Source: Thiobacillus sp.
Lineage (GTDB): Bacteria; Pseudomonadota; Gammaproteobacteria; Burkholderiales; Thiobacillaceae
Assembly: GCA_024710445.1 (NCBI GenBank)
Contig: JANJUT010000031.1
Location: 1-13,603, forward strand
Reading direction: 5' to 3'
DNA length: 13,603 nucleotides
The translations under genes were made by a program, and so were the position numbers. The notes under the pieces were generated by a model. The model saw only the letters and a program-made list of their open reading frames with translations. It searched no databases and was not told the origin of the DNA. Positions 94-13,378 of the stretch are shown here, in pieces; position 1 is the first letter of the stretch; every line of letters begins with the position of its first letter.

Positions 94-1236
94 TCAGCCC
101 ACAATATTTTCCTGGAACTGCAGCTGGATTTCGTCGATCAGGCTGCGGTTTTCGATGAGCGCATTGACGCAGTGCGCATCCAGCTTTTTGCCTGCCAGCT
201 TGCGCAACAGATCGAATGCATCGTCGTTGCTCCATGCGGGCTTGTAGGGTCGGCGACTGGTGAGTGCGTCGAAAATATCGGCCACCGCGACGATGCGCGC
301 CTCGACAGGAATATCCTCGCCAGAACGCCCATCCGGATAGCCCGAGCCATCGACTGACTCGTGATGAAACAGGGCGATATTGCGCAGGATATTGCTTCCC
401 TGCACTGCCCCCATGTCGAAGTGCAACAGCATCCTGTCGATGATTTCCCGCCCACGGGCCGGATGCGTCCGCATCAACGCTTCCTCTTCCGCGTCGAGCT
501 TGCCGGGCTTTAACAGAACCCGGTCCGGGATGGCAATTTTTCCAATGTCATGCAGCGGGGAAAAGATGAATATCTTCTCGATGTATTCGTCGGTCAATCC
601 GTAGCGCTCGGCAACCGACTGGGCAATGATGCGGGCGAATCGCGACATGCGGTCAAGGTGCGACCCGGTTTCCCCATCCCGCGCGTGAGTCAGGTCGCGT
701 GCCGTTTTTACCGTGGCAAGCAGGGTATGCAGGGTGGTCAGGTCGTTGATGATGGTGAGCGCGATCAGATGCCCGAATGGATCGATCTGGCCCAGCACTT
801 CCTCGGCAAAACAATCCGGCTCGTGTGAATTGAAAAACAGAAAGCCAAACAGATGTCCATTCTGATACATGGGCATGGTGTAGCTGGCGCGATAGCCTTT
901 GGCGGCAATGCGCCTGGCATGTTCTCGCGGGCTGTTGGCGAAAATGGCCAGATCGTTCACCACGCGCGGCCGGCCGAGCTCGATGATTTCGCTCAGGGTC
1001 AACGTATCCGACAGCCTGGCCGTGTAATGCGTGAGTGGAACATTTTGCTCGCCGGTCTGCAGAAAGGTCTGGAGCGTGTCCGTTCCGGGGTCGTAGACCG
1101 CTGCGGCAATATGCCGGATAAAAGCAAAGCGCTCCCGCAACGCGGCATGGATCGTCTGCACCTTGTCCTCGAGGCTGACGTTCTGGTCGAGCGAGCCCAG
1201 TCGATCTTCATGATCGAACATGGTTGGTGTGTTCAT
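94..1236 (-). CDS. GAF domain / HD-GYP cyclic-di-GMP phosphodiesterase
   Basis: 380 aa. The C-terminal half is a complete HD-GYP domain, the class that hydrolyses cyclic di-GMP at a metal centre. Visible motifs are E189-x3-H193, the HD pair H229-D230 in HDIGK, H258-P-x2-G262, H291-H-E293, DGSGYP (296-301) and D320 followed by RPYK at 329-332, so all expected metal ligands are present. The N-terminal part, about residues 23-165, looks like a GAF sensor domain because of its length and its MPMYQNGHLFGFLFFNS strand pattern; its ligand cannot be told. There is no signal peptide or membrane segment, so it should be cytoplasmic. No strong Shine-Dalgarno precedes the ATG at 1236, and an internal Met at residue 6 is an alternative start. 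It lies 114 bp downstream of queD on the same strand, with no functional link apparent. Confidence 0.93.
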   Translation of the reverse strand: MNTPTMFDHEDRLGSLDQNVSLEDKVQTIHAALRERFAFIRHIAAAVYDPGTDTLQTFLQTGEQNVPLTHYTARLSDTLTLSEIIELGRPRVVNDLAIFANSPREHARRIAAKGYRASYTMPMYQNGHLFGFLFFNSHEPDCFAEEVLGQIDPFGHLIALTIINDLTTLHTLLATVKTARDLTHARDGETGSHLDRMSRFARIIAQSVAERYGLTDEYIEKIFIFSPLHDIGKIAIPDRVLLKPGKLDAEEEALMRTHPARGREIIDRMLLHFDMGAVQGSNILRNIALFHHESVDGSGYPDGRSGEDIPVEARIVAVADIFDALTSRRPYKPAWSNDDAFDLLRKLAGKKLDAHCVNALIENRSLIDEIQLQFQENIVG

Positions 1237-2275: not shown

Positions 2276-3412
2276 TCAGGCAGCCAGTTCCTTCACCAGC
2301 GTGGCACGACGGCCGGTTTCGCTGCCGGTGAGCGCAAAGCCCTGCAGCACGCCGTTTTCGTCCACATGCAGCGCACAGATGCCGGTGTCGTTGCATTCCA
2401 CTTTCCAGCCGCCGCTCGCGCCCATTCTGGGTGGCAAGACTGCCACCGGGTGCGCGGGGGTTTTGACCATGACCGGCATGGGCGGGTAAATCACCGGGGT
2501 CGGGGTTCCGGTCAGGGTGGCGGCCAGTGCACGCGCCTGCACCATCAAGGGCTGAACGTAGGGCAGATTAAGCCCCTCGACTTCCGCGCAATCGCCCATG
2601 GCGTAGACATTCGGCGCCCCGGTTTCGAGCAGGCGACTGGTCTGGATGCCGCGCCCGACTGCAATGCCCGCCGCCTGAGCCAACTGGATGCGCGGCCGCA
2701 AGCCGATCGCCGACAGGACGACATCGGTTGCAATCGTCGCGCCGTCATCGAGCACCACCTGATAGCCCTCGCTGGCCGACTCGACCCGCCTGGCGGTATG
2801 CCCGAAATGCCAGTTCACGCCCAGCGCGGCCAGTCCGTCCGCCAGGCGCTGGCCGGCCTCGACCGGTATCAACCGTTCCAGCGGCCAGTCCCCGAGATGC
2901 ACCACATCAACCGCAAATCCGGCATGCGCCAGATCGTTGGCGAACTCGCAGCCGATCAAGCCACCGCCCAGCACCGTGATACGTTTCTTGCCATCGATGG
3001 CTTTCCGAAAGGCTGCATAATCGGTCAGATCATTCACCGCCAGCACCGCCGCCGCACCGTCCCCGCTGAGTCCGTGCGGAATCGGATCGGCGCCCAGCGC
3101 AAGAATCAGGGCGCTATACGCCAGTTCGCCGTTATCCATGTGCACACGCTGTGCAGCCGTATCAATTGCATGCACCCGCGTATGCGCCAGGACAGTGGCA
3201 TTCAGGTCGGCCGCCAGCTTCTCGGCGCTGGCACTTGCCAGATCCGCTGCCGTTTTTTTGGCTGCAAGCGCGTTCGACAGATTGGGCTTGGCATAAAACG
3301 CACCGTCGTCCGCGGTCACGAGCGTGATCGGCGTGGTGCGGTCACGCTTGCGCAACTCCTTGAGCAAGGTGTATCCGGCAAGGCCGGAACCTACAATGAC
3401 GATGGGGTGCAT
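2276..3412 (-). CDS. rubB: NAD(P)H-dependent rubredoxin reductase (FAD flavoprotein)
   Basis: 378 aa, typical for the RubB type of rubredoxin reductase, which passes electrons from NAD(P)H through FAD to rubredoxin. It has two Rossmann folds. FAD binding is shown by GSGLAG (8-13) and YAMGDCAEVEG (270-280), and NAD(P)H binding by GGGLIG (149-154). LALGADP (104-110) and SAIGLRP (234-240) are the usual linking motifs. The C-terminal 60 residues match the rubredoxin-binding domain of this subfamily. AAGGAG lies six bases before the ATG. It is the last gene of the rubrerythrin-rubredoxin-reductase operon and sits just after an intrinsic terminator-like hairpin, so its expression is probably set below that of rubredoxin. 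Ferredoxin and nitrite reductase subunits share the fold, but the adjacent rubredoxin gene makes this assignment firm. Confidence 0.93.
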   Translation of the reverse strand: MHPIVIVGSGLAGYTLLKELRKRDRTTPITLVTADDGAFYAKPNLSNALAAKKTAADLASASAEKLAADLNATVLAHTRVHAIDTAAQRVHMDNGELAYSALILALGADPIPHGLSGDGAAAVLAVNDLTDYAAFRKAIDGKKRITVLGGGLIGCEFANDLAHAGFAVDVVHLGDWPLERLIPVEAGQRLADGLAALGVNWHFGHTARRVESASEGYQVVLDDGATIATDVVLSAIGLRPRIQLAQAAGIAVGRGIQTSRLLETGAPNVYAMGDCAEVEGLNLPYVQPLMVQARALAATLTGTPTPVIYPPMPVMVKTPAHPVAVLPPRMGASGGWKVECNDTGICALHVDENGVLQGFALTGSETGRRATLVKELAA

Positions 3413-3425
3413 ACAGGGCTCCTTG

Positions 3426-3454
3426 AAAAAAATCGGCGCACCCCTGGTGCGCCG
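3426..3454 (-). terminator. Intrinsic terminator or attenuator between rubredoxin and its reductase
   Basis: Read on the minus strand, a perfect 9-bp stem CGGCGCACC / GGTGCGCCG closes a three-base loop AGG and is followed by A and seven T. This is a textbook rho-independent terminator. It lies after the rubredoxin stop and directly before the ribosome site AAGGAG of the reductase. Because the reductase is co-directional with no obvious promoter of its own, it probably acts as a partial terminator that lowers reductase transcript relative to rubredoxin and rubrerythrin. Confidence 0.85.
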
Positions 3455-3472
3455 GCGGTAAGTCGGGAACGA

Positions 3473-3643
3473 TCAGGCCGCGATTTCAACCATCTCGAAA
3501 TCCATCTTCGATACGCCGCAGTCAGGACACTCCCAGCTTTCCGGCACATCCTCCCAGCGGGTGCCGGGTGCGATGCCGTGATCCGGATCGCCCTTGGTCT
3601 CGTCATATTCATATCCGCACACAATACATTGCCATGTTTTCAT
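3473..3643 (-). CDS. rubA: Rubredoxin
   Basis: 56 aa, standard rubredoxin size. One iron is held by four cysteines in two knuckles: C6-x2-C9 (CIVCGY) and C39-x2-C42 (CPDCGVSK). The family motifs [20 protein letters not shown] and W37 are present. I chose the ATG at 3643, not the upstream one at 3685, because AAAGGA stands six to eight bases before it and the extra 14 residues do not resemble any rubredoxin. It is a small cytoplasmic electron carrier. Here it most likely takes electrons from the reductase downstream and passes them to the rubrerythrin encoded 42 bp upstream, which lacks its own rubredoxin domain. It could also serve other oxidoreductases. Confidence 0.96.
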
Positions 3644-3685
3644 CGTGATTCCTTTCAATGCGTTCAATTTGGTTTGAGTATTCAA

Positions 3686-4159
3686 TCAGGCTGCAATCGC
3701 GTCTTTTTGCGCCTGGTAGTGCCTGGCGTGCTTCTCTTCCACCTTGGCCAGCGCGGCAAAACGCTTGGCGGCCTTTTCCAGCACGCCCCTGAACATTTCG
3801 GCATGCTCTTTCGACTCGGCAATCTGCTCGTCGATTTCGGCGACAGCCGCATCGTGACCTTCCTGCATCGCTTCGTGGCGGAATTTCGGGTACATCTCGG
3901 TGTACTCGTGGGTTTCGCCGTCGATCGCGTATTGCAGGCACTTGGCCGGCGTCATGGTCTCGTCGGCGAACAGCAGTTCGGCGTGGCCAAACGCGTGCAG
4001 CATTTCCTGCGCCGCGGTGTCCTCGAACACCCTGGCCGTGGCTTCGTCGCCGGCCTTGCGGCACTGGCGGGCAAACCACATGTATTTGATATGAGCCATC
4101 GACTCGCCGGCGAAGGCGGCTTCAAGGTTCTGGATGGTTGGGGATTTCGTGTTCTGCAT
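3686..4159 (-). CDS. Rubrerythrin, diiron peroxidase without C-terminal rubredoxin domain
   Basis: 157 aa, an all-helical ferritin-like protein. Diiron ligands are visible as E19 (FAGESMAH), E52-x2-H55 (QEMLHAF), E82 and E85 (GETHEYTEMYP) and E141-x2-H144 (AKVEEKHARHY). Rubrerythrins reduce hydrogen peroxide to water in the cytoplasm with electrons from rubredoxin. Classical ones end in a CxxCG rubredoxin domain; this one stops after the helical bundle, and a separate rubredoxin gene follows 42 bp downstream. Relative to short rubrerythrins as I recall them, about 15 extra residues lie between the third and fourth ligand helices. AGGAGC lies seven bases before the ATG. It is the first gene of the operon, with a palindrome and a promoter candidate upstream. 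Sulerythrin-like diiron proteins are the nearest alternative. Confidence 0.93.
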   Translation of the reverse strand: MQNTKSPTIQNLEAAFAGESMAHIKYMWFARQCRKAGDEATARVFEDTAAQEMLHAFGHAELLFADETMTPAKCLQYAIDGETHEYTEMYPKFRHEAMQEGHDAAVAEIDEQIAESKEHAEMFRGVLEKAAKRFAALAKVEEKHARHYQAQKDAIAA

Positions 4160-4334: not shown

Positions 4335-4766
4335 ATGCGCCGCTTGCCGACCGCCGTCCTGCTTGTCCTGTCCCCTCTTCCTGCCGTCGCAGCGGCACCC
4401 ATCATGCAACCCGGCCTGTACGAGGTTTCCGTGCAAATGGTGATGAAGGGCATGCCGATGCAAATGCCCGCCTCCTCCTTCCGGCACTGCATCACGCCCC
4501 AGGACATTGTCGACGGCAAGGCCTATGCCAGCAGTAAGGACAACAAGGACTGCAAAATCAGCAACCTCAAACAAAGCGGCAACGCGGTCAGCTATGACTT
4601 CGCCTGCGTCATGCAAGGCCACGGCAACATGGTTGGACGCTCCAGCGGAACCAGCCATGCAACCGGCTATGACATGCAGATGACCGGGCGCTTCGTCCCG
4701 GCGATGGAAGGCATGAGTGAATTCAGCCAGAAGATGAGCGCAAAGCGGCTTGGGGCCTGCAAGTAA
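4335..4766 (+). CDS. DUF3617 family secreted protein
   Basis: 143 aa from the ATG at 4335, which has GGGAG six bases upstream. The longer open frame adds residues without a ribosome site and hides the signal peptide. Residues 1-20 form a Sec signal peptide (basic MRRLPT, a hydrophobic core, then AVAA before AP). The mature part starts PGLYEVSVQMVMKGMPMQM, the signature opening of DUF3617 proteins, small periplasmic beta-rich proteins of unknown role in proteobacteria. Four cysteines (52, 73, 91, 142) follow the family pattern HCITPQD, KDCKIS, FACVM and GACK and could pair as two disulfides in the periplasm. The mature protein is unusually rich in Met. It is divergent from rubrerythrin. No function can be assigned. 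Confidence 0.85.
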   Translation: MRRLPTAVLLVLSPLPAVAAAPIMQPGLYEVSVQMVMKGMPMQMPASSFRHCITPQDIVDGKAYASSKDNKDCKISNLKQSGNAVSYDFACVMQGHGNMVGRSSGTSHATGYDMQMTGRFVPAMEGMSEFSQKMSAKRLGACK

Positions 4767-4801
4767 TGCCTGTAAGTAATAAGGGGACAGAGTCCACGAC
4801 T

Positions 4802-4825
4802 GAAAACCGGGCAGCTATTAGCCCG
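4802..4825 (-). terminator. Possible intrinsic terminator downstream of the GIY-YIG gene
   Basis: On the minus strand CGGGC / GCCCG with an eight-base loop (TAATAGCT) is followed by GTTTTC. The stem is short and the T run is only four, and it lies about 220 bp past the nuclease stop. It is the best terminator candidate for the Fic-helicase-nuclease unit. Confidence 0.3.
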
Positions 4826-4882
4826 AAATCACGGCTCCCTGATTGAGGAACCAGCAGGCTCCTTTTTAGCGGCCGCCCGGTT
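4805..4882. repeat. Long-armed inverted repeat in the island junction
   Basis: AACCGGGC (4805-4812) and GCCCGGTT (4875-4882) are perfect reverse complements 62 bases apart, extendable by two bases with one mismatch. GGCTCC occurs twice inside as a direct repeat. The right arm abuts a GCGGCCGC palindrome at 4869-4876. It could be a structured RNA or the trace of a lost element; I do not recognise it as either. Confidence 0.4.
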
Positions 4883-4908
4883 CTGAAGGTACATTTATCG
4901 CTGCCCGA

Positions 4909-4989
4909 TCAATAGCGGAAGTGCATGCCGATAAACGCATCCGGCTCTTCCTCGGCCGTTGCGGCCAGCAGTTCATCGCCCGAAGAACG
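4909..4989 (-). pseudogene. Orphan C-terminal fragment, resembles the end of an outer-membrane protein
   Basis: A 26-codon stretch on the minus strand ends EEEPDAFIGMHFRY followed by a stop. It has no start codon of its own and an in-frame stop lies directly upstream. Alternating residues and a terminal Tyr are the signature of the last beta strand of outer-membrane barrels. I read it as the tail of a gene whose body was removed, possibly when the neighbouring island entered. The parent family is not recognised. Confidence 0.35.
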
Positions 4990-5042
4990 TCAGCCTCAGA
5001 ACGCGAATCTGTCAGAAATAATTCACAAAATTCCGCACGTGT

Positions 5043-6224
5043 TCAGCCAACCAACCGAGCTGTTTTTGGGTCGTAGACCACCTCAGTAATTGACCCATCC
5101 CGAATGCGCTGAACCGCTTCGTCAATCACTTGCAGCGGCACCAGAAACCACTCTCTCGGCTTGACCGGATTCCCGAAGCGGTCTGAGAGGGTCAGGTCGA
5201 GCTGTGCAGCGCCGAATAAGCGATGGAAGATGTTTTCCAGTCTGGTGCGGTTGAGGTTGTGCAGCTTGTAGGTGGCAACTATTTCCACATCAGCCAACAG
5301 GTAGGTGGCATCTTTTTCTGCATTGGCGATACGTGTTTCCACCTTGCCGCCTGTTACCCCGATCTTGTGAATCAGCTCGCGATGCTCGGCGACGAATGGG
5401 TGGCTGGACAGGCTGCGCAGCACATAGATGGTTCCGGTTTCAATGTCGTCCGGCTCAGGCGCATCGCCAAACAGTGGCCCCATGTCCGGATCGGTCAGGC
5501 GGCGGCCGGTGTCGTCCTTGTAGAGCGCCCGCTGCAGCGAGCGACGCAGCAAGTTGCTTTCCGTACCGTTGGCGTAGATAACGCGCAAACGCGCATCGCT
5601 TTCGCCGTTCGGCGCCTTGATGGTTTCGCCGATTTCGGCCACATAGGCAAGCTGTCCGCCAACGATAAAGAAATTCCCGCTGGCAATACTGGCATCGCGG
5701 CCGAAGCGCAGCGTTTTGCGGACGCCGGATTTCAACTCCCGCTCCACCTGCTCGAACAACGGTTGGAATTTGTCGAAATCCGCACACGGCGTGCGGTCGG
5801 CAACTTCCTCCGCCGCACGTTTTTCAACGCTGGAACGCACATGGCGCAGCACGGTGATGTCGTTCTGGTCGGCGGATTCATCGCCAATGCCCAACTCGGC
5901 CAGCAAGGCGTCTTCGTCCAGGTTGTCCACATCGGCCGGAGCTGCTGCTTCACCCGACAGCAGGCCTGGGCCATCCAGACCAGCCAGCAGGGTGTGCGCT
6001 TCCGGCAACTTGCGCAGCTGGTCCAGGCGCACGGCATACAGGCGTTCGAAAATATCGCGATCCTCGCCGTGCAGTGGGGCGCGCCCATGGGCCTGATGGA
6101 AGCGCAGAATGTCCTCGAAGCCCGCGATGATGCGTTCCTCGCGCGGGGTCCGGCTAGCGGCCTTGAGCGGGGCGACTTCTACACCCAGCGCATCCAGCAG
6201 TTCGTCGTCGTCCATCTCAGCCAT
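5043..6224 (-). CDS. GIY-YIG nuclease family protein, last gene of the restriction-like locus
   Basis: 393 aa from the ATG at 6224, which overlaps the helicase stop (ATGGCTGA). The frame runs back to a GTG at 6266, adding 14 Arg-rich residues, and an ATG at 6215 is also possible. Residues 263-365 carry a GIY-YIG fold of the T5orf172 kind: TIYVLRS (Y267), HKIGVT (G289), R298, the metal-binding E330 in RTRLENIF, then REWFLVPL. These enzymes cut DNA as monomers on one metal ion. The N-terminus holds an acidic-Leu motif, DDDELLDALGV (5-15), repeated as DEDALLAELGI (103-113). Between them (residues 27-73) is a helical module with HGRAPLHGEDRDIFERLY that resembles the helicase C-terminus. Overlap with the helicase implies coupled translation and joint work. 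It is the likely DNA-cutting component, but its target is unknown. Confidence 0.85.
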   Translation of the reverse strand: MAEMDDDELLDALGVEVAPLKAASRTPREERIIAGFEDILRFHQAHGRAPLHGEDRDIFERLYAVRLDQLRKLPEAHTLLAGLDGPGLLSGEAAAPADVDNLDEDALLAELGIGDESADQNDITVLRHVRSSVEKRAAEEVADRTPCADFDKFQPLFEQVERELKSGVRKTLRFGRDASIASGNFFIVGGQLAYVAEIGETIKAPNGESDARLRVIYANGTESNLLRRSLQRALYKDDTGRRLTDPDMGPLFGDAPEPDDIETGTIYVLRSLSSHPFVAEHRELIHKIGVTGGKVETRIANAEKDATYLLADVEIVATYKLHNLNRTRLENIFHRLFGAAQLDLTLSDRFGNPVKPREWFLVPLQVIDEAVQRIRDGSITEVVYDPKTARLVG

Positions 6225-8340
6225 TGCCGGATGCGCCTTGTGCCTGAGTCGCCTTGGCCTGCGCACGGTAGCGCGCCAGTGCGGTCACGCCCTCGGCCAT
6301 GCGTTTTTCCCACGCATCGGCGGAATGGATGTCCGGCAGGCGGCCACGCTCGCTCTTGAACTGCAAGGCGCGCCTTGCCAGGTCACGGGCTTCGTCTTCG
6401 GGAATGCTCACCTTCTTGGCGGCAATACTGGCCTGCACCTGGCGCAGCGATTTCTCATCCATCGCTTTCGCCAGCACCGCATAGGCGGCATCGAAGGGAT
6501 TGATGCGGTCGATCAGGTCGATGTCCAGGTCGCGCACGTTGATGAACTTGCGCACCCCGTCGATCAAGGCCGTACTGCCCTGAATGCTGCCATCACCATT
6601 CGCATCGGCCTGTGCCAAGGCCAGCTTGGCCTGCTGGGTAATATTCATGGCGGCGATAGCGTGTTGACGGATAGCCTCCTGATCACCGTCGCTCAACTCC
6701 GGGTAACGCTCGCGCACGATCTTGCCCATGCGCAATTGCGTCAGCTCTTCGGGCAAGGTGTTTTCCTTGTCGAACAGGCCGCGCTCCAGCACGGTCTTGT
6801 CCTGCAGGAAACTGGTGACGACTTCGTTCAAGTCCTCCTTGCAGATGCGCGTGGCCTCCGGGCTTTGCGGTGTTGCCAGCCCGTTGATTTCCACATGAAT
6901 CTGGCCGGTGTCCGTGTTCACCCCGATGTTATGGCCGCCTTCCTTGTAGTTTCCATCGCCGTAATCGAAGCCCGGCAGTGGCCCATTGTTCCTGGGCGTG
7001 AACTCATAGCGCGGGGCCAGCACCTGCTCCATCAGCAGGCTGGCAGAAATCGCCTTGAGCATGTCGTTCACCGCCTCGGCCACGGCGACTTGTTCGGCTG
7101 CGGGTTCAGCGATCAGGTTGGTGAAGCGCGCCCGCTCCTTGCCCTCGGCATCGCGGGTAGCACGGCCGATGATCTGCACGATCTCGGTCAGGCTGCTGCG
7201 GTAGCCGATGGTCAGCGCGTGCTCGCACCAGATCCAGTCAAAACCTTCCTTCGCCATGCCCAGCGCAATGATGATGTCCACATGGTCGCGGTTGTTCTTC
7301 TGCGCCGGGTCTTTCAGCGCGGCCAGCACTTTTGAACGCATAGCCAGGTCACTGTCATCTACAAGGTCCGCCACCTTCAGCGTGCGGCCTGTCTTGGTTT
7401 GTATCTGGTGAAAGCCAGTGGCCGGGTCGATGCCTTTCCATTCGCCCAGCGAATGCATGATCTCGTTGACCTCGCGCTCCTTGTCCTTCAGGCTTTCGCG
7501 GGCATTGACGTTGGGAATGTGGACGATGGTTTTAAGCGCAGGGTCCAACACCTTCTCCACGGCTTCCACATAGCGGCCCGTGTAGAAGAAGTAGCCGATG
7601 TCCAGCGATTTGAGCCAGTGGTAGCCGTTGAGCTGCTCGTAATAGGTGTACGTCACCGTCTCGAACCGCGCCTCGTCCGCCGGGGCCAGCACCGCTTCGC
7701 TGTCGCCCCGGAAGTAAGAGCCGGTCATGGCCACCACATGCACCTTGTCGCGGGCGATGAACGCGCCCAGCTGATTGCCCAGCACGTTGTCCGGGTTGCT
7801 GGAAACGTGGTGGAACTCGTCGATGGCGATCAGGCGGTCATCGAAAGCCTGAATACCCAACTCCTCCACCGCAAAGCGGAACGTGGCATGGGTGCAGACC
7901 AGCGCCTTGTCGGTGCTTCCCATAAACGTGCGCACCGCATCCACCTTGGACTTCGCCACGCGCGGCTCGTCCACGCCAGGGGCATTGCACAGGTTCCACT
8001 GCGGGGCCACCTGCCAATCCCAATAGAAGCCGTGCTGGCTCAAGGGTTCGTCGGCAAAGCTGCCGCCGATGGAGCGCTCCGGCACCACGATGATGGCCTG
8101 CCGCAGGCCCTGGTTGTGGAGTTTGTCCAGCGCGACAAACATCAGCGCGCGGGATTTCCCCGAAGCGGGTGGCGACTTGATCAGCAGGTATTGTTCGCCG
8201 CGCCTGGCATAGGCGCGTTCCTGCATGGCGCGCATTCCCAGCGCGTTGGCCTTGCTCGATGCGCCGGTACGCGCCGTGGTGATGGACACCGACGGCACGG
8301 TGTAGGCGTTGGTCGGGTTGGTTGGGCTTGATTCGGTCAC
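6217..8340 (-). CDS. SF2 DEAD/DEAH-box helicase of the restriction-like locus
   Basis: 707 aa, starting at a GTG (8340) 35 bp after the Fic stop, with a weak GGA seven bases upstream. It carries the SF2 motor: motif I SPPASGKSR (56-64), motif II DEFH (174-177), motif III TGS (206-208), GMAKEGFD (361-368) as motif V and QIIGRATRD (389-397) as motif VI. The layout recalls the Res subunits of type III restriction enzymes and other translocases that move along duplex DNA using ATP. No nuclease motif is visible in its 300-residue C-terminal part, so cutting would have to come from the GIY-YIG partner. Residues about 650-691 form a small module with GRLPD and WEKRMAEG like helicase-associated domains. 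The 8-base overlap with the nuclease gene suggests a fixed ratio of the two proteins. Confidence 0.9.
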   Translation of the reverse strand: MTESSPTNPTNAYTVPSVSITTARTGASSKANALGMRAMQERAYARRGEQYLLIKSPPASGKSRALMFVALDKLHNQGLRQAIIVVPERSIGGSFADEPLSQHGFYWDWQVAPQWNLCNAPGVDEPRVAKSKVDAVRTFMGSTDKALVCTHATFRFAVEELGIQAFDDRLIAIDEFHHVSSNPDNVLGNQLGAFIARDKVHVVAMTGSYFRGDSEAVLAPADEARFETVTYTYYEQLNGYHWLKSLDIGYFFYTGRYVEAVEKVLDPALKTIVHIPNVNARESLKDKEREVNEIMHSLGEWKGIDPATGFHQIQTKTGRTLKVADLVDDSDLAMRSKVLAALKDPAQKNNRDHVDIIIALGMAKEGFDWIWCEHALTIGYRSSLTEIVQIIGRATRDAEGKERARFTNLIAEPAAEQVAVAEAVNDMLKAISASLLMEQVLAPRYEFTPRNNGPLPGFDYGDGNYKEGGHNIGVNTDTGQIHVEINGLATPQSPEATRICKEDLNEVVTSFLQDKTVLERGLFDKENTLPEELTQLRMGKIVRERYPELSDGDQEAIRQHAIAAMNITQQAKLALAQADANGDGSIQGSTALIDGVRKFINVRDLDIDLIDRINPFDAAYAVLAKAMDEKSLRQVQASIAAKKVSIPEDEARDLARRALQFKSERGRLPDIHSADAWEKRMAEGVTALARYRAQAKATQAQGASGNG

Positions 8341-8375
8341 GGTGCGATCCAGACAGCGGGTGGTAGACGATGGGT

Positions 8376-9533
8376 TTATTCCGTCTCGCCTTGAGACAGC
8401 AAACTCACAAGAGGAACATTAATGAAATACAGGTGTTTTCCCTGGCTGTGTTCCCGTACCAGCCCGGCATCGGCCAGTTTTCGCAAGTAGCGGGCAGCCG
8501 TTTGTCGGGTGATGTTCAAATCCCGCTGTACAAACTCGATGCGCGTGTAGGGGTGGCGGAAGAGGTTGTTTAGCAAGTCCTGCGAATACAGCTTGGGCAA
8601 CTCCTTGCGCATGCGGTGTTTTGTGTCCGCCATCAAGGTTCGCATGTCGCCCACCAGCCCAACGGCACGTTGTGCAGTGTCCGCCACGCCAAGCAACATG
8701 AATTTCACCCAGGCTTGCCATGGTTCGGCATGGGGCTCGGCACTGGGCGAGGCATCGCGCACGGCTTGCAACAGGCGGTAATACTCGCTCTTGTTGTGGT
8801 TAATGTAGCGCGACAGGTAAAGCACCGGCGAATCGAGCAGGCCAGCCTGCACCAGATACAGCACGCACAGAATCCGTCCGATCCGCCCATTACCATCGCT
8901 GAAGGGATGAATGCTCTCGAACTGATGGTGGATCAATGCCATCTTGATGATCGGATCAAGCTGGCTAACGCCGTCATCGTTGATGAACTTTTCCAGCGCC
9001 TGCATGTGCGCCTGCACGCTGGCCCCATCCTGGGGCGGCACAAACACCGTAGCGCCCGTTCTATCGTTTTTAAGCACCGTGCCGCCGCTGGTGCGAAACG
9101 CTTCGCTGCTGTTCTTGAGGAGCTGAAACATCGAAATCAGCGTACCGTTGCCGATGATTCCCTGCTGCTGACGCATACGCTCGTAACCATGCATCAATGC
9201 CTCGCGGTAGCGTGAGACCTCCTTGGCTGAGGGCGAAATCCATTCGGCAATATGCAGATCAGCCTGAAATAACTCGTCTTGCGTCGTGACATAACTCTCG
9301 ACTTCAGAACTTGCCTTGGCCTCTTGCAGCGCAAGGGTGTTGATCAGGATGGCCTGATTGGGAATGCTGGCCGCGCAGCCTTTCAGTTCCGCCAGATACC
9401 GGTGAGCCGCCACCAGCGTCCGCAGCAATTCAGGCGTCTGGAAATCGATGCCTGCCAACGGCAGCTCGGGTATCCGGTAATCGGGCTGCAAAGTCATGTC
9501 GAGATTCCGTGATTGATCGAGCGGGGGTAACAT
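8376..9533 (-). CDS. Fic family protein with C-terminal winged helix
   Basis: 385 aa. The Fic core has the full catalytic loop HPFSDGNGRIGR (209-220), so AMP transfer (or another nucleotide transfer) from ATP to a hydroxyl on a target protein is expected. The N-terminal inhibitory helix reads SSEVES (75-80): the Glu that blocks ATP binding (E79) is kept, but the following Gly/Asn of the usual S/TxxxE(G/N) motif is Ser. Residues 328-372 form a winged helix (FVQRDLNITRQTAARYLRKLADAGLV plus a basic wing), as in Shewanella SoFic. The ATG at 9533 has GAGG six bases upstream and lies inside a palindrome; an internal ATG at 9497 with GGAA is a fair alternative. It heads the unit Fic-helicase-nuclease and may be its autoregulator. 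Confidence 0.92.
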   Translation of the reverse strand: MLPPLDQSRNLDMTLQPDYRIPELPLAGIDFQTPELLRTLVAAHRYLAELKGCAASIPNQAILINTLALQEAKASSEVESYVTTQDELFQADLHIAEWISPSAKEVSRYREALMHGYERMRQQQGIIGNGTLISMFQLLKNSSEAFRTSGGTVLKNDRTGATVFVPPQDGASVQAHMQALEKFINDDGVSQLDPIIKMALIHHQFESIHPFSDGNGRIGRILCVLYLVQAGLLDSPVLYLSRYINHNKSEYYRLLQAVRDASPSAEPHAEPWQAWVKFMLLGVADTAQRAVGLVGDMRTLMADTKHRMRKELPKLYSQDLLNNLFRHPYTRIEFVQRDLNITRQTAARYLRKLADAGLVREHSQGKHLYFINVPLVSLLSQGETE

Positions 9534-9551
9534 GAGGCGCCTCTCGTGTTA
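9528..9551. promoter_or_regulatory. Operator-like palindrome O1 over the Fic start
   Basis: TAACATGAG, six bases (GCGCCT), then CTCGTGTTA: 9-bp arms with one mismatch. It covers the ATG and ribosome site of the Fic gene. The left arm read backwards, CTCATGTTA, is identical to the right arm of O2. Confidence 0.65.
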
Positions 9552-9564
9552 ACAAAACGCATTA

Positions 9565-9593
9565 TTTTTAACACAATGCGGCCCTCATGTTAA
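9565..9593 (-). promoter_or_regulatory. Candidate sigma70 promoter of the Fic-helicase-nuclease unit
   Basis: On the minus strand TTAACA (9588-9593, five of six against TTGACA) and TAAAAA (9565-9570, four of six) are 17 bases apart in an AT-rich patch. The start point would fall near 9557, about 24 bases before the Fic ATG. O2 fills the -35 to -10 interval. Confidence 0.5.
9569..9592. promoter_or_regulatory. Operator-like palindrome O2 over the promoter
   Basis: TAACACAAT, six bases (GCGGCC), then CTCATGTTA. It has the same 9-6-9 layout as O1, 41 bp away centre to centre (about four helical turns). Outer TAACA/TGTTA bases match fully; the inner left arm is weaker. Confidence 0.6.
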
Positions 9594-9818
9594 AAAATTT
9601 GCGTATCGAGGCCGCATACAAAAACAAGGGGAGAGCGTGGTGGCTGATCCGGAACCACGCCCACTCGAGGGCAAGTACAGGTTCAGTCGGCCAGATCAAG
9701 ACCATCATCCCGCTTCGATACCATTGACACTAGCGTGAATCGCGCTACCATGCGCAGGCGACTAGCGCACTCGTTTCGATGCGAGCCGTCCCTTCCGGGC
9801 CTAGTCGTTCCAAATACC
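9594..9818. other. Non-coding gap between the two units of the locus
   Basis: No convincing gene on either strand. It holds a 7-bp hairpin GCGTGGT / ACCACGC at 9635-9641 and 9654-9660 without a T run, and GCGCTA / TAGCGC arms at 9742-9747 and 9763-9768. Either could slow or end transcription from the DUF3800 gene, but neither is a clear terminator. Confidence 0.4.
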
Positions 9819-10532
9819 CTAAGGCCAGCGTTGAATGTGTACATTCCCGCTGGCCTTAATCTTTTCCCAAGCCGTTTTCACTTCCTGTTCATGCCAGCGG
9901 TCGGGTACATCGTTGTTGTTTTCGTAGCGTCCCGCCATGTACACCAGCAAATCCGCCACCTGCAAGAACCGGCTGTGATGCGATTGGGTGAAATACACCG
10001 TGTCCAGCAAGCGGCCCAGCGGGCGGCCAAAGTACATCGGTGTTTTGCCCTGGCTTTTGTATTCCGAGAAATCCACCACTGCGCCGGTCACTTCGTCGGC
10101 CTCGTAATCCCCGAACACCAGCCCCAGGTCATCCGCCTTATCCAGATATTCCGAAAAGCGTTCCAGAATCAGCATTAGCCCGAGCCGATAGGCCGGCATG
10201 GGGTATTGGTACTTGTTCTTGTGTTTTTCGACATTGATGCACACCATGCGCACCGGAATCTGGTTGTTGGTCACAAAGGTGGCCACATCCTGAAACACCT
10301 GCACCCGCTCTTCCAGCTTGCGGCCTTTGGCATTGCCCTTGCCGTGAAAAAGCTCCTTGCCGTGAAACTCATTGGCCTGGATCAATGAACGCGCACCAAA
10401 GAAGTTGAATGCAATCTGGTTCAATGTGTTCTCAAAATCCAACGCCTTCTTATCCGGGATCAGCAGCCCGCCGATAAAGAAGTGGGGCTTGTCCGGGCCA
10501 TGCTTGTTTTCATCGAAATAGCACAGATGCAT
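9819..10532 (-). CDS. DUF3800 domain protein
   Basis: 237 aa. DUF3800 proteins are common in defence islands and phages and are thought to have an RNase H-like fold with a cluster of acidic residues; their activity is not established. Family marks here are CYFDEN near the N-terminus (D7, E8; many relatives have DESG), EFHGKEL (E55), a central GDYEADE (141-147) and RFLQVADLLVYMAGR near the end (D194). These acids could form a two-metal site. The ATG overlaps the methyltransferase stop by one base (TGATG), so its translation is probably coupled to it. It therefore belongs with the methyltransferase and not with the effector unit downstream. A nuclease or RNA-processing role is possible but unproven. 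Confidence 0.88.
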   Translation of the reverse strand: MHLCYFDENKHGPDKPHFFIGGLLIPDKKALDFENTLNQIAFNFFGARSLIQANEFHGKELFHGKGNAKGRKLEERVQVFQDVATFVTNNQIPVRMVCINVEKHKNKYQYPMPAYRLGLMLILERFSEYLDKADDLGLVFGDYEADEVTGAVVDFSEYKSQGKTPMYFGRPLGRLLDTVYFTQSHHSRFLQVADLLVYMAGRYENNNDVPDRWHEQEVKTAWEKIKASGNVHIQRWP

Positions 10533-13378
10533 CAGATACCCTCCAGGGTTTGCGCCTGCATTTTCGCCTTTTTTACCTTCGGCGCGGCTTTGAACGCGGC
10601 CGCCGTCATCTTCGTATAAAGCTCAAACAGCTTTTCCAGCCGCTCGGTGTCGTTCCTGAAGCGGCGGCCGATGTAGATGCGCTCCAGCACCTCGTCGTTG
10701 CGCTCGTGGGCGCGGCGCAGATTTTCCGGCATATTGTCCGGGTCGTAGAGGTCGGCGATGGTGGCGGGGAAATGCGCTTCGCGCGCCAGCAGGATGGCCT
10801 CGGCGCAGGCGGTCAGGTCGGCCTTGTTCTGCTCGGTGAGCAGGGGGACGGGGAAGGTGTTCCAGCCGAGGGTGTTGGAGTAACGGTAGCGCGTTTCCAG
10901 CTTGCCGCATACCGTAGCGATCCAGACGAGGTGCAGGCGCGAGGCGATGAGCGCCAGGTTCCAGAGGGGGGCGTCGTAGAGGGCGAAGGCCTGATCTTGA
11001 ATGACGGCATCGCTCAGCAATAATCCGACCGGTAGACAGGGGCGATTCTCGGAACTGACGCGCGGTACGACCAGCGTGTGAGTGTGGCCGGATTCTTGAT
11101 CGCGGAAGCGGTAAGGCGTGGTCGCCAGCTTCTGCGCCGCCTTGTCCTGCGTCGCAGCTTTTCTTGATTCCGCGACGGTATGCATTCTTGCCGCAACCGG
11201 CGCGATACGCGCTGCCGCTTCGGCCTCGTGATCCTGAATCCAGAGGCAGGCGCGTGGTGCGCAGTCGATGAGTTCTTTCGAGCCATAAAGCGGGCGGATG
11301 AAACGCGCGGCTTCCGGGGCAGCCGTGCGCAATGCGCGCGCTTCGTCCTGCGAAAAAATCAGCGCCGCGCCGTAGTAGGGATGGTTTCCGAACTGCATCG
11401 GTGCCAGCCCCGACATCGGGGCTGTGCGTCCATCAACCTCGACGTTCGGTGCAGAAATCAGATAAGCGTTGATGTTTTCGGCGTCGCGCACCGCTGTTCC
11501 GTCGTTGTCCGAGGGCGCATAAAGACGCCGGGTTTTGCCCGCCCGACGGGACAGACCGACGATGACCACGGTCACGCCTGCGTTGTGGCTGGCGAGGTTG
11601 GCCCACTTGAACGAAGTGTGTGCGAACGCGATTTCGTTCCCGGTGGCGAAGATCGCGGGCCAGAGTATCGGCACCTGCTGCCCTTGGCAGATCGAGTTCG
11701 TCGATACAAGTGCAGCGGCGGCGTTTGTTCTCGTGCCGTAATCGGCGGCTTTCATAAACCAGCCAGCGACGTAATCCAGCGATTTCCAGCCTTTGACGCG
11801 CTTGTCGAATACCGCTTGTAAATCCTCCTTGTGCTCGGCGGTTTGCCATTTGCTGCCCAGATACGGCGGATTACCACAGATATAAGTCTCGCCGCCTTCG
11901 TTCACGAAGTCGATTTCAGTCTGATCCAGCGGCGTGTTGAAGAGATCGTCTCCCTGCACTTTCACCCCCGTACCCGTGGCAGGGCAGATGCTCAACCAAT
12001 CCAGCCGCAGCGCGTTACCGCACACGATCCAGTTCTGCGCATCCAGCGGCAGAAATTCCGCCAGCGCATCCTTCTGCCCGCGATACAGCACGTCGCACTG
12101 GAACTCGGCAATGATGAGGGCGAGGCGGGCAATCTCCGCAGGGAAGTCGCGCAGTTCGATGCCGCGGAAGTTGGTCAGCGGGATTTCCGATTTCAGGTGG
12201 GTTTCGTCACGGCGGCGGTTGATTTCTGCCTCGATCTGGCGCATCTGTTTGTAGGCGATGACCAGAAAATTTCCGCTGCCGCAGGCCGGGTCGAACACGC
12301 GGATGCGCGCCATGCGCTTACGCAGATTGAGCAGCTTGATTTTGTTGTCGCCCGCCTCAGCCAACGCGACGCGCAGCTCATCCAGGAACAAGGGGTTCAA
12401 CACCTTGAGGATGTTGGGCACGCTGGTGTAGTGCATGCCCAGTGCGCCGCGCTCTTCGTCGTCGGCCACGGCCTGGATCATGCTGCCGAAGATGTCGGGG
12501 TTGATCTGTTTCCAGTTGAGGTTGCCGGCGTGGGTGAGGTAGGTGCGGGCCATGCGGGTGAAGCGCGGCACGTCCGTTGCGCCTGCGAACAGGCCGCCGT
12601 TCACATAAGGGAACTGGTCTGCCCAGCTCCGAAGCCCGGCGGCTTTGCGGTGGCGGTCGTCCAGCTTGCCCTCGTGCCGGGTGGGCGTGTTCATGGCGCG
12701 GAAAATCTCGGACAGCACCTCGTGGGTGTTGCTGCCGTCGCGCTCGCTCATCTGCTCGACGGTGTGGGTGAACAGGCCTTCGCCATTGAAGATGTCGGTG
12801 TCTTCGGCGAAGAAGCAGAACACCAGCCGCGCCATGAAGTGATTCATGTCGGGGCGGCGCTCGTTGGCGGCCCAGTCCGGGTTCTCGCGCAGCAGTTCGA
12901 CGTACAGCTTGTTGAGCCGCCCGGTGGCGCGCACGTCGATGGGGTTGTCCTTGATCTCCTTGACGGTGGAGATGCCGGCCAGCGGCAGGAAGAAGCCAAA
13001 GTGGTCGGGGAAGTCGGGGTAGGCGCAGGCGATGGTTTCGCCACCGGCCAGTTCTTCCGCTTCCAGCGTCTGCCCGTCGGTGGCGAGGATGAATTTGGCC
13101 TTCGCTTTTGCGGTGGCCGGGCTGGCGCGCAAGGCTTTGAGCGTTTCGCCTACGCTGCCTGCTTCGCACACGGCGAGATGGATGTTGCTGCGCTGGAGCA
13201 CCGCATTGATGACGCCCGGGCCGGTCACGTCCGAGGCGTTGTTGTTGCCCGTGCGCAGGCGCTTGAGGGTGGTGTCCTTATTGCCGAAAGCGGCGAGGAA
13301 GGCGAATGGGAACTCCGCCGCGTCAAAGAGCTCAAGGGCGAGGTCGGAAATGGCTGCTTCGATTTCTACTGCGTTCAT
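10532..13378 (-). CDS. MmeI-type class I N6-adenine DNA methyltransferase
   Basis: 948 aa from the ATG at 13378. The frame is open upstream only to a TTG and the added residues are not family-like. It is a gamma-type amino methyltransferase in the MmeI/YeeA group: GMHYTS as motif X (314-319), DPACGSGNF as the SAM-binding motif I (363-371) and NPPYLG as catalytic motif IV (503-508), followed by a target-recognition region (about 660-820) and a helical C-terminus starting YSNTLGWNTFPVP. N6-adenine methylation of a specific duplex site using SAM is expected. Type IIL relatives such as MmeI carry an N-terminal D...ExK nuclease; I find no such motif in the first 200 residues, so it is probably a methylase only. 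It overlaps DUF3800 by one base and is the first gene of the locus. Confidence 0.9.
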   Translation of the reverse strand: MNAVEIEAAISDLALELFDAAEFPFAFLAAFGNKDTTLKRLRTGNNNASDVTGPGVINAVLQRSNIHLAVCEAGSVGETLKALRASPATAKAKAKFILATDGQTLEAEELAGGETIACAYPDFPDHFGFFLPLAGISTVKEIKDNPIDVRATGRLNKLYVELLRENPDWAANERRPDMNHFMARLVFCFFAEDTDIFNGEGLFTHTVEQMSERDGSNTHEVLSEIFRAMNTPTRHEGKLDDRHRKAAGLRSWADQFPYVNGGLFAGATDVPRFTRMARTYLTHAGNLNWKQINPDIFGSMIQAVADDEERGALGMHYTSVPNILKVLNPLFLDELRVALAEAGDNKIKLLNLRKRMARIRVFDPACGSGNFLVIAYKQMRQIEAEINRRRDETHLKSEIPLTNFRGIELRDFPAEIARLALIIAEFQCDVLYRGQKDALAEFLPLDAQNWIVCGNALRLDWLSICPATGTGVKVQGDDLFNTPLDQTEIDFVNEGGETYICGNPPYLGSKWQTAEHKEDLQAVFDKRVKGWKSLDYVAGWFMKAADYGTRTNAAAALVSTNSICQGQQVPILWPAIFATGNEIAFAHTSFKWANLASHNAGVTVVIVGLSRRAGKTRRLYAPSDNDGTAVRDAENINAYLISAPNVEVDGRTAPMSGLAPMQFGNHPYYGAALIFSQDEARALRTAAPEAARFIRPLYGSKELIDCAPRACLWIQDHEAEAAARIAPVAARMHTVAESRKAATQDKAAQKLATTPYRFRDQESGHTHTLVVPRVSSENRPCLPVGLLLSDAVIQDQAFALYDAPLWNLALIASRLHLVWIATVCGKLETRYRYSNTLGWNTFPVPLLTEQNKADLTACAEAILLAREAHFPATIADLYDPDNMPENLRRAHERNDEVLERIYIGRRFRNDTERLEKLFELYTKMTAAAFKAAPKVKKAKMQAQTLEGI

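What the first reader, a model, noticed from the sequence alone, without database searches (positions are those of the whole stretch)
5043..13378. Five-gene restriction-like locus: MmeI-type methylase, DUF3800, Fic-wHTH, SF2 helicase, GIY-YIG nuclease
Seen: five co-directional genes, two overlapping pairs, complete catalytic motifs in methylase, helicase, Fic and nuclease. Known: methylase plus translocase plus nuclease is the core logic of restriction systems, and DUF3800 and Fic proteins turn up in defence islands. Inference: the helicase and GIY-YIG form an effector that spares methylated DNA, with Fic as controller or second-line toxin. The set matches no DISARM, BREX, type I or type III layout I know: there is no HsdS, no Res nuclease domain, no PglZ and no DrmB.
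Basis: partly seen in the sequence, partly recalled or inferred. Interest (0 to 1): 0.8.

Follow-up and report, generated by a model that had tools for sequence, protein, structure and literature searches.

The report
DnmA-YeeB-YeeC restriction-like system with cargo
These five genes are a known but poorly understood three-gene bacterial DNA-marking-and-cutting system (a DNA methylase, a motor and a nuclease) with two extra genes, a predicted nuclease and a protein-modifying Fic enzyme, lodged in a spot where relatives of the system repeatedly carry other defence-type genes.

Summary
The five co-directional genes are real but not one five-gene system. Methylase (M), helicase (H) and GIY-YIG nuclease (G) match the published DnmA(YeeA)-YeeB-YeeC trio of Bacillus subtilis. 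In 121 of 123 deduplicated relatives M precedes H on the same strand; the other two run off their contigs. Fic (F) and DUF3800 (D) are cargo at the M|H junction, which holds extra DNA in 61 of 121 loci; H-G does in 1 of 114. In 33 of 58 classified slots the cargo is YhcG, AlbA_2, RhuM, GmrSD_N, PDDEXK_4 or DUF3800. No relative had both F and D. M has lost MmeI's nuclease residues in 105 of 105; methylase, motor and GIY-YIG residues are kept. Its recognition domain is hypervariable (43% mean identity where helicases are at least 85% identical); contact residues follow the MmeI code and predict NNGG(m6A)C. Best reading: a split ATP-dependent restriction-modification system carrying second-line effectors. 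Activity is unproven: the B. subtilis locus was reported inactive, a Vibrio one protective. New variant of a known kind.

The parts
10532..13378 (-). M: MmeI-family N6-adenine DNA methyltransferase, DnmA/YeeA-like, nuclease residues lost
   Evidence: Pfam MmeI_N/hel/Mtase/TRD/C; PADLOC REase_MTase_IIG 3e-286; D70/E80/K82 equivalents not kept in 105 of 105, NPP[YF] in 105 of 105
12887..13378 (-). MmeI_N domain with degenerate PD-ExK site (residues 30-193 of the 977-aa frame)
   Evidence: profile A4 aligned to MmeI 5hr4; MmeI catalytic residues from PMC4833311; column counts
10841..11452 (-). target-recognition domain, hypervariable between relatives; contact residues predict NNGG(m6A)C
9819..10532 (-). 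D: DUF3800 protein, predicted RNase HII/HIII-like fold with D7, E8 and D194 invariant in 25 sequences; slot cargo
   Evidence: Pfam DUF3800, alignment A5, AlphaFold2 pLDDT 87.7, fold matches
9547..9573 (-). 27-bp inverted repeat TGTTAA-N15-TTAACA at -40 to -14 of the Fic start, operator-like
   Evidence: at least 9 of 12 consensus letters in 7 of 8 Fic relatives, 6 of them at -39/-40
8376..9533 (-). F: Fic adenylyltransferase with SSEVES (autoinhibitory-type) motif, HPFSDGNGRIGR and SoFic-like C-terminal domain; slot cargo
   Evidence: Pfam, SoFic chain 9tc4 E 1.3e-70
6217..8340 (-). H: YeeB-like SF2 ATPase
   Evidence: motifs conserved in 123 sequences, window included; AlphaFold2 pLDDT 82 with two RecA lobes like Hef, FANCM and RIG-I-like motors; relative on NC_019327 annotated YeeB
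5043..6266 (-). G: YeeC-like GIY-YIG/T5orf172 nuclease (ATG at 6224 possible start)
   Evidence: PF10544 and PF13455; Tyr281, Arg312 and Glu344 in 116 of 116, window included
4766..5043 (.). left edge of the acquired segment: similarity to 5 same-genus genomes ends at 4760-4770

Best explanation
The locus is a DnmA-YeeB-YeeC-type split restriction-modification system with two cargo genes in its methylase|helicase slot. Shown by sequence: M is a MmeI-family adenine methylase that keeps its methylase and recognition domains but has lost the N-terminal nuclease residues; H keeps the SF2 motor motifs; G keeps the GIY-YIG residues; the three are a conserved ordered unit; the recognition domain differs sharply between otherwise similar relatives. 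Inferred: M marks one strand of an asymmetric site (predicted NNGG(m6A)C), and on unmarked sites M recruits H, which moves on the duplex by ATP hydrolysis and brings G to cut, as type ISP and type III enzymes do. Inferred: D (RNase H fold) and F (autoinhibited AMP-transferase under its own operator) are second-line effectors released when restriction is defeated, like the toxins embedded in other R-M operons.
For: Order M-H-G in Pseudomonadota, Bacillota and Acidobacteriota. Published trio with the same domains; MmeI_TRD rings in the B. subtilis control genome. Nuclease residues kept in 0 of 105; methylase, motor and GIY-YIG residues kept. TRD 42.8% mean identity against 74-90% for the other M domains in 519 pairs with H at least 85%; the dip lies in M windows starting at 530-830 (35-67%, other M windows 73-95%). 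Contact pairs follow the MmeI code: E/R 42 and [KR]/D 58 of 105 at 806/808. Slot gap over 250 bp in 61 of 121, H-G gap over 150 bp in 1 of 114; 33 of 58 slots carry YhcG, AlbA_2, RhuM, GmrSD_N, PDDEXK_4 or DUF3800. Occupancy changes at least 31 times on the H tree. Fic in the slot of L135 beside HEPN, D in the slot of L129. D fold: RNase HII/HIII. Fic operator. V. crassostreae deletions of dnmA and yeeB raised sensitivity to some phages, as reported in PMC9973331.
Against: B. subtilis dnmA-yeeB-yeeC restricted neither plasmid uptake nor three phages, and its site is not avoided in phage genomes (PMC7261158, PMC9973331 passages). The V. crassostreae effect was absent for other phage subclades. 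No contact between H, G and M was shown; the shared motif of H 644-691 and G 37-87 is weak (probability 51%). D and F also occur away from the trio: D alone on a phage-like contig (L144), F in five of eight inspected plasmid regions without the trio; in a sixth an IS sits in M. 25 of 58 slots carry none of the reference cargo families and 2 of 58 have no co-directional ORF of 90 aa. L017 has only a short G-like fragment. The MmeI code was read from alignments only.
Confidence: 0.66

Rival explanations
1. A decayed restriction system kept for its methylase: M is a regulatory orphan methylase and H, G are relics, as concluded for B. subtilis DnmA.
For: B. subtilis single deletions had no phage or transformation phenotype (PMC9973331, PMC7261158 passages). 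L017 has only a fragment of G.
Against: Motor and nuclease catalytic residues are conserved in 123 and 116 sequences; TRD switching at near-constant helicase fits restriction better than gene regulation; V. crassostreae phenotype as reported in PMC9973331.
Confidence: 0.17
2. D and F are unrelated mobile passengers that merely landed in an operon, with no functional tie to M-H-G (compatible with an active or a dead core).
For: Lower GC than M, H and G (0.53 and 0.56 against 0.605-0.619); F has its own operator; relatives occur without the trio; the four nearest relatives by H have an empty slot.
Against: The M|H junction is opened in 61 of 121 loci while H|G is in 1 of 114, and 33 of 58 slots carry a few recurrent defence-type families; Fic recurs beside the trio in L073, L125, L135 and Acetobacter plasmids.
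Confidence: 0.35
3. All five genes are one obligate system in which Fic controls the helicase-nuclease effector.
For: Co-direction and overlaps.
Against: None of 123 relatives had both F and D; 60 of 121 have a gap of 250 bp or less between M and H; F has its own operator-like repeat.
Confidence: 0.05
4. M is a stand-alone type IIG/IIL restriction enzyme next to unrelated genes, as an automatic PADLOC call would say.
For: PADLOC REase_MTase_IIG 3e-286.
Against: MmeI nuclease residues not kept in 105 of 105; constant partners H and G.
Confidence: 0.02

Closest known systems
DnmA(YeeA)-YeeB-YeeC, Bacillus subtilis (PMC7261158, PMC9973331)
   Same: MmeI-like methylase without nuclease motif, then SF2 helicase, then T5orf172/GIY-YIG protein, same order; m6A at an asymmetric 6-bp site
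   Different: two cargo genes between M and H; different predicted site (NNGGAC against GACGAG); B. subtilis YeeB and YeeC were reported to lack C-terminal stretches present in V. crassostreae
MmeI, type IIL restriction-modification (5hr4, PMC4833311)
   Same: same domain order and recognition-domain code; E 6e-251 for the family profile
   Different: nuclease residues D70/E80/K82 gone; motor and nuclease are separate proteins
Type ISP and type III restriction enzymes (e.g. LlaBIII)
   Same: by analogy: one-strand m6A, SF2 motor, nuclease (recalled); LlaBIII is among the Foldseek hits of H (rank 4, E 2.3e-9, TM 0.35), a generic SF2 match
   Different: ISP is one chain with an Mrr nuclease (recalled); here three genes and a GIY-YIG nuclease
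R-M operons with embedded PrrC, DOC, RhuM or HEPN genes (PMC3710099)
   Same: toxin or effector genes in R-M gene neighbourhoods, proposed there as multi-level defence (passages)
   Different: described there around HEPN genes; here the host operon is the DnmA-YeeBC trio
SoFic (9tc4, 3eqx)
   Same: near full-length match, Fic motif, Glu of the inhibitory motif, C-terminal domain
   Different: 342 bits against the NCBIfam SoFic cut-off of 550

Membership tests
DnmA-YeeB-YeeC trio | MmeI-like methylase lacking the endonuclease motif | tested here: met
DnmA-YeeB-YeeC trio | order methylase, SF2 helicase, T5orf172/GIY-YIG on one strand | tested here: met
   in the window D and F intervene between M and H
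DnmA-YeeB-YeeC trio | helicase homologous to YeeB | tested here: inconclusive
   relative on NC_019327 annotated YeeB; B. subtilis YeeB itself was not aligned
DnmA-YeeB-YeeC trio | restriction of unmodified DNA or phage | not testable with these tools
   needs experiment; literature mixed
Type IIL/IIG (MmeI) | N-terminal PD-ExK nuclease in the methylase chain | tested here: not met
   D70, E80, K82 equivalents: no D, E or K respectively in 105 of 105
Type I R-M | HsdS and HsdR nuclease | tested here: not met
   no such Pfam or NCBIfam match in the five proteins
DISARM | DrmA, DrmB, DrmC | tested here: not met
   among the five proteins only DrmMI hits of M, weaker than IIG; the contig ends 225 bp upstream of M, so genes further upstream are unseen
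BREX | PglZ, BrxC | tested here: not met
   among the five proteins only weak PglX hits of M; same limit of the contig
SoFic adenylyltransferase | NCBIfam equivalog cut-off | tested here: not met
   341.8 bits against 550
Fic/DOC | HxFx[DE]GNGRxxR | tested here: met
   HPFSDGNGRIGR
DUF3800 | Pfam gathering score | tested here: met
   55.9 against 21 bits

The most novel reading that the evidence does not exclude
The methylase|helicase junction of the DnmA-YeeB-YeeC family is a modular effector bay: the trio is a widespread, active, ATP-dependent split restriction system that keeps re-targeting its recognition domain and keeps swapping second-line effectors (YhcG, Schlafen, RhuM, GmrSD, HEPN, PIN, DUF3800, Fic) in one fixed slot whose release is tied to failure of restriction.
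Probability: 0.42. Interest if true: 0.72.

Novelty: new variant of a known kind. Interest (0 to 1): 0.52.

Why it matters
PADLOC's best model files M under type IIG enzymes, although its nuclease residues are gone and its partners are constant. If the trio restricts, it is a large, largely untested class of ATP-dependent restriction system: all 7999 candidates that the helicase search could score were relatives. The question raised by the inactive B. subtilis locus becomes testable, with a predicted site and a natural series of relatives with and without cargo. The slot offers a ready list of candidate effectors, many without any Pfam match.

Tried and rejected
Five-gene unit: rejected; neither F nor D accompanies most relatives. 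Stand-alone IIG: rejected on the lost nuclease residues. A D-x7-14-[DE]xK pattern in the N-domain occurs in 6 of 105, but the aligned catalytic columns hold no D, E or K respectively. D as specific to the trio: rejected; a 74% identical copy on contig L144 sits alone among phage genes, and the remote DUF3800 genes looked at lie in unrelated loci (by eye). Shared domain of H and G: only a weak match, not used. PDB sequence profiles of H and G: no hit to E 0.01. The fold comparison of H spanned mainly residues 31-504; the C-terminal part was barely tested. No Rfam match in the window at gathering scores. No tRNA. Phage records: three partial or distant H hits. 26 viral-labelled contigs with H were scanned; some slots there hold YhcG or RhuM, but they are not in any count. 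MmeI+GIY-YIG+helicase+Fic+methyltransferase+defense: no paper; YhcG+RhuM+restriction-modification: none. Six helicase hits in genomes were fragments or at contig edges and were not fetched (G203, G519, G546, G791, G1011, G1064). My first 6-kb limit missed M in three loci; corrected.
Full report
OBSERVATION. The five genes exist as described. Their domains are MmeI_N/hel/Mtase/TRD/C for M, DUF3800 for D, Fic_N plus Fic plus SoFic-like C-terminal domain for F, SF2 motifs for H and T5orf172/MUG113 for G. PADLOC's best model is a type IIG enzyme for M and SoFic for F; H has one weak hit (PbeA, E 5e-4) and G none. The window is a whole contig of a genome of 292 contigs that is 77% complete.

WHAT THE CORE IS. 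Six further hits were fragments or lay at contig edges and were not fetched. After removing three duplicates 123 loci remained. M lies upstream of H on the same strand in 121 of 123; in the other two, L017 and L060, the contig starts within about 1 kb of H (L110, L111 and L135 were missed by my first 6-kb limit). G follows H in 118 of 123; in four of the other five the contig ends at or just after H, and L017 has only a short G-like fragment. Of 114 loci with all three genes counted, ranks were given for 75: 71 Pseudomonadota, three Bacillota, one Acidobacteriota. This is the DnmA(YeeA)-YeeB-YeeC trio. PMC7261158 (passages) says DnmA is 38% identical to MmeI, lacks its endonuclease motif and is followed by yeeB (putative helicase) and yeeC (putative endonuclease), and cites Morgan 2009 (not held) for a type I-like proposal. 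PMC9973331 (passages) finds the trio conserved, and no restriction in B. subtilis. It also reports a Vibrio crassostreae study (not seen by me) in which deleting dnmA or yeeB raised sensitivity to some phage subclades and not to others. I did not align B. subtilis YeeB; the links are the domain set, an Acetobacter relative annotated YeeB and the MmeI_TRD hit in B. subtilis.

M IS A METHYLASE WITHOUT NUCLEASE RESIDUES. PMC4833311 (passages) names D70, E80 and K82 as the catalytic residues of MmeI. In the profile alignment of 28 M proteins to MmeI these fall on G, A and C. Among 105 M sequences (window included) the E80 column holds no E, the K82 column no K, and the residue ten before E80 is never D (E in 3). 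Methylase motif IV is NPP[YF] in 105 of 105. H keeps PP[AS]SGKS in 123 of 123, and G keeps the Tyr, Arg and Glu of the GIY-YIG fold in 116 of 116, window included.

THE RECOGNITION DOMAIN DIFFERS SHARPLY. In 519 pairs of loci whose H proteins are at least 85% identical (pairs are not independent), mean identities of M domains are N 84.8, spacer 80.3, methylase 74.2, TRD 42.8 and C 90.1%. In 50-residue windows, in 491 such pairs that also have G, M windows starting at 530 to 830 average 35-67% and the others 73-95%; the lowest mean in H is 75% and in G 63%. The residues that read DNA in MmeI (PMC4833311 passages) change as pairs: at 806/808 E/R 42 (C at base 6), K/D 30 and R/D 28, others 5 of 105; at 774/810 K/S 27, L/R 22, A/R 15, R/S 13, the rest other pairs. 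K/D is the published pair for G; reading R/D the same way is my extension. The window has R/D (751/773, G at base 3), Q/R (774/810, bulky, so G at base 4) and E/R (C at base 6), hence a predicted NNGG(m6A)C; bases 1 and 2 are not predicted. This is inference from alignment. As expected for a variable domain, six random TRD columns give even more combinations (mean 89) than these six contact columns (59), against 27-32 in other domains; so the pairing, not the number of combinations, is the evidence.

THE SLOT. Between M and H, 60 of 121 loci have a gap of 250 bp or less and 61 a larger one. Of the 58 that classified, 56 hold a co-directional ORF of at least 90 aa (L007 and L034 do not). Between H and G a gap over 150 bp occurs in 1 of 114 (L084). 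In four near relatives with an empty slot the M stop overlaps the H start, as ATGA (L001, L006, L020) or GTGA (L002). Of 76 co-directional slot ORFs of at least 90 aa, Pfam finds YhcG in 13, AlbA_2 in 10, RhuM in 6, GmrSD_N in 3, PDDEXK_4 in 2, PIN in 2, and one each of AbiJ_NTD4, AAA_15, YafQ, RelB and DUF3800 (25 of 34 families shown; one protein can match several families). By comparison with reference cargo, 33 of 58 slots hold YhcG, AlbA_2, RhuM, GmrSD_N, PDDEXK_4 or DUF3800 and 25 do not. On a FastTree tree of H the occupied/empty state changes at least 31 times over 118 tips; 300 label shuffles average 39.4, and 1 of 300 reaches 31 or fewer, so occupancy follows kinship only weakly. The window's nearest relatives by H (L002 at 92%, L020, L001, L006) have an empty slot; the next, L083, has RhuM.

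ACQUISITION. Similarity of the flank to the five best of 39 other same-genus genomes stops at window 4760-4770 in all five, and the 11-16 kb stretches fetched hold no M, H or G. Among 117 family genomes the matches to H lie in three genera, and in the window's genus only in its own genome. The other edge is off the contig.

NOVELTY. The trio is published. That its M|H junction is a recurrent cargo slot I did not find in the searches made; PMC9973331 mentions an uncharacterised family that might be a further member of the locus in some bacteria. Effectors embedded in R-M operons are an old idea. Hence a new variant of a known kind.

Noticed in passing
window 2276-4159: Rubrerythrin (3686-4159), rubredoxin (3473-3685) and a NorW-like reductase (2276-3412) lie together, a likely peroxide/oxygen-stress operon with relatives in the genus.
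   Followed up: partly
window 94-1236, 1351-1710 and 1694-2248: GAF-HD-domain protein, a QueD/PTPS-like protein (89.8 bits against the cut-off of 89.25 for TIGR03367) and a rhodanese-domain protein.
   Followed up: no
L135:6103-14126: An 8-kb slot between M and H with LA2681-like HEPN, a 1535-aa protein with AAA helicase and MTES_1575 nuclease domains, a 114-aa protein and Fic.
   Followed up: partly
L055, L064, L067, L076, L107 slots (e.g. L064:7091-8302): A family of about 330-430 aa; the member scanned has no Pfam match, but by eye it resembles GIY-YIG/T5orf172 (KHLYIL, VKVGFS), a possible second nuclease as cargo.
   Followed up: no
L072, L090, L127, L130, L132 slots: A protein family with HGLRDFRNYIHPY near its C-terminus, HEPN-like by eye.
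   Followed up: no
L144: Phage-like contig with a terminase-like gene (by eye) carries D alone against the strand of its neighbours, plus an AbiEi/AbiEii-like pair (by eye).
   Followed up: partly
H residues 644-691 and G residues 37-87: Weakly similar helical motif (F..ergR.P) at the end of the helicase and the start of the nuclease; a possible docking or DNA-binding element.
   Followed up: partly
L084: The only one of 114 loci with a gap over 150 bp between H and G (662 bp).
   Followed up: no
L017: Contig of a Candidatus Nitrotoga with intact H but only a short G-like fragment after it, possibly a broken system.
   Followed up: no
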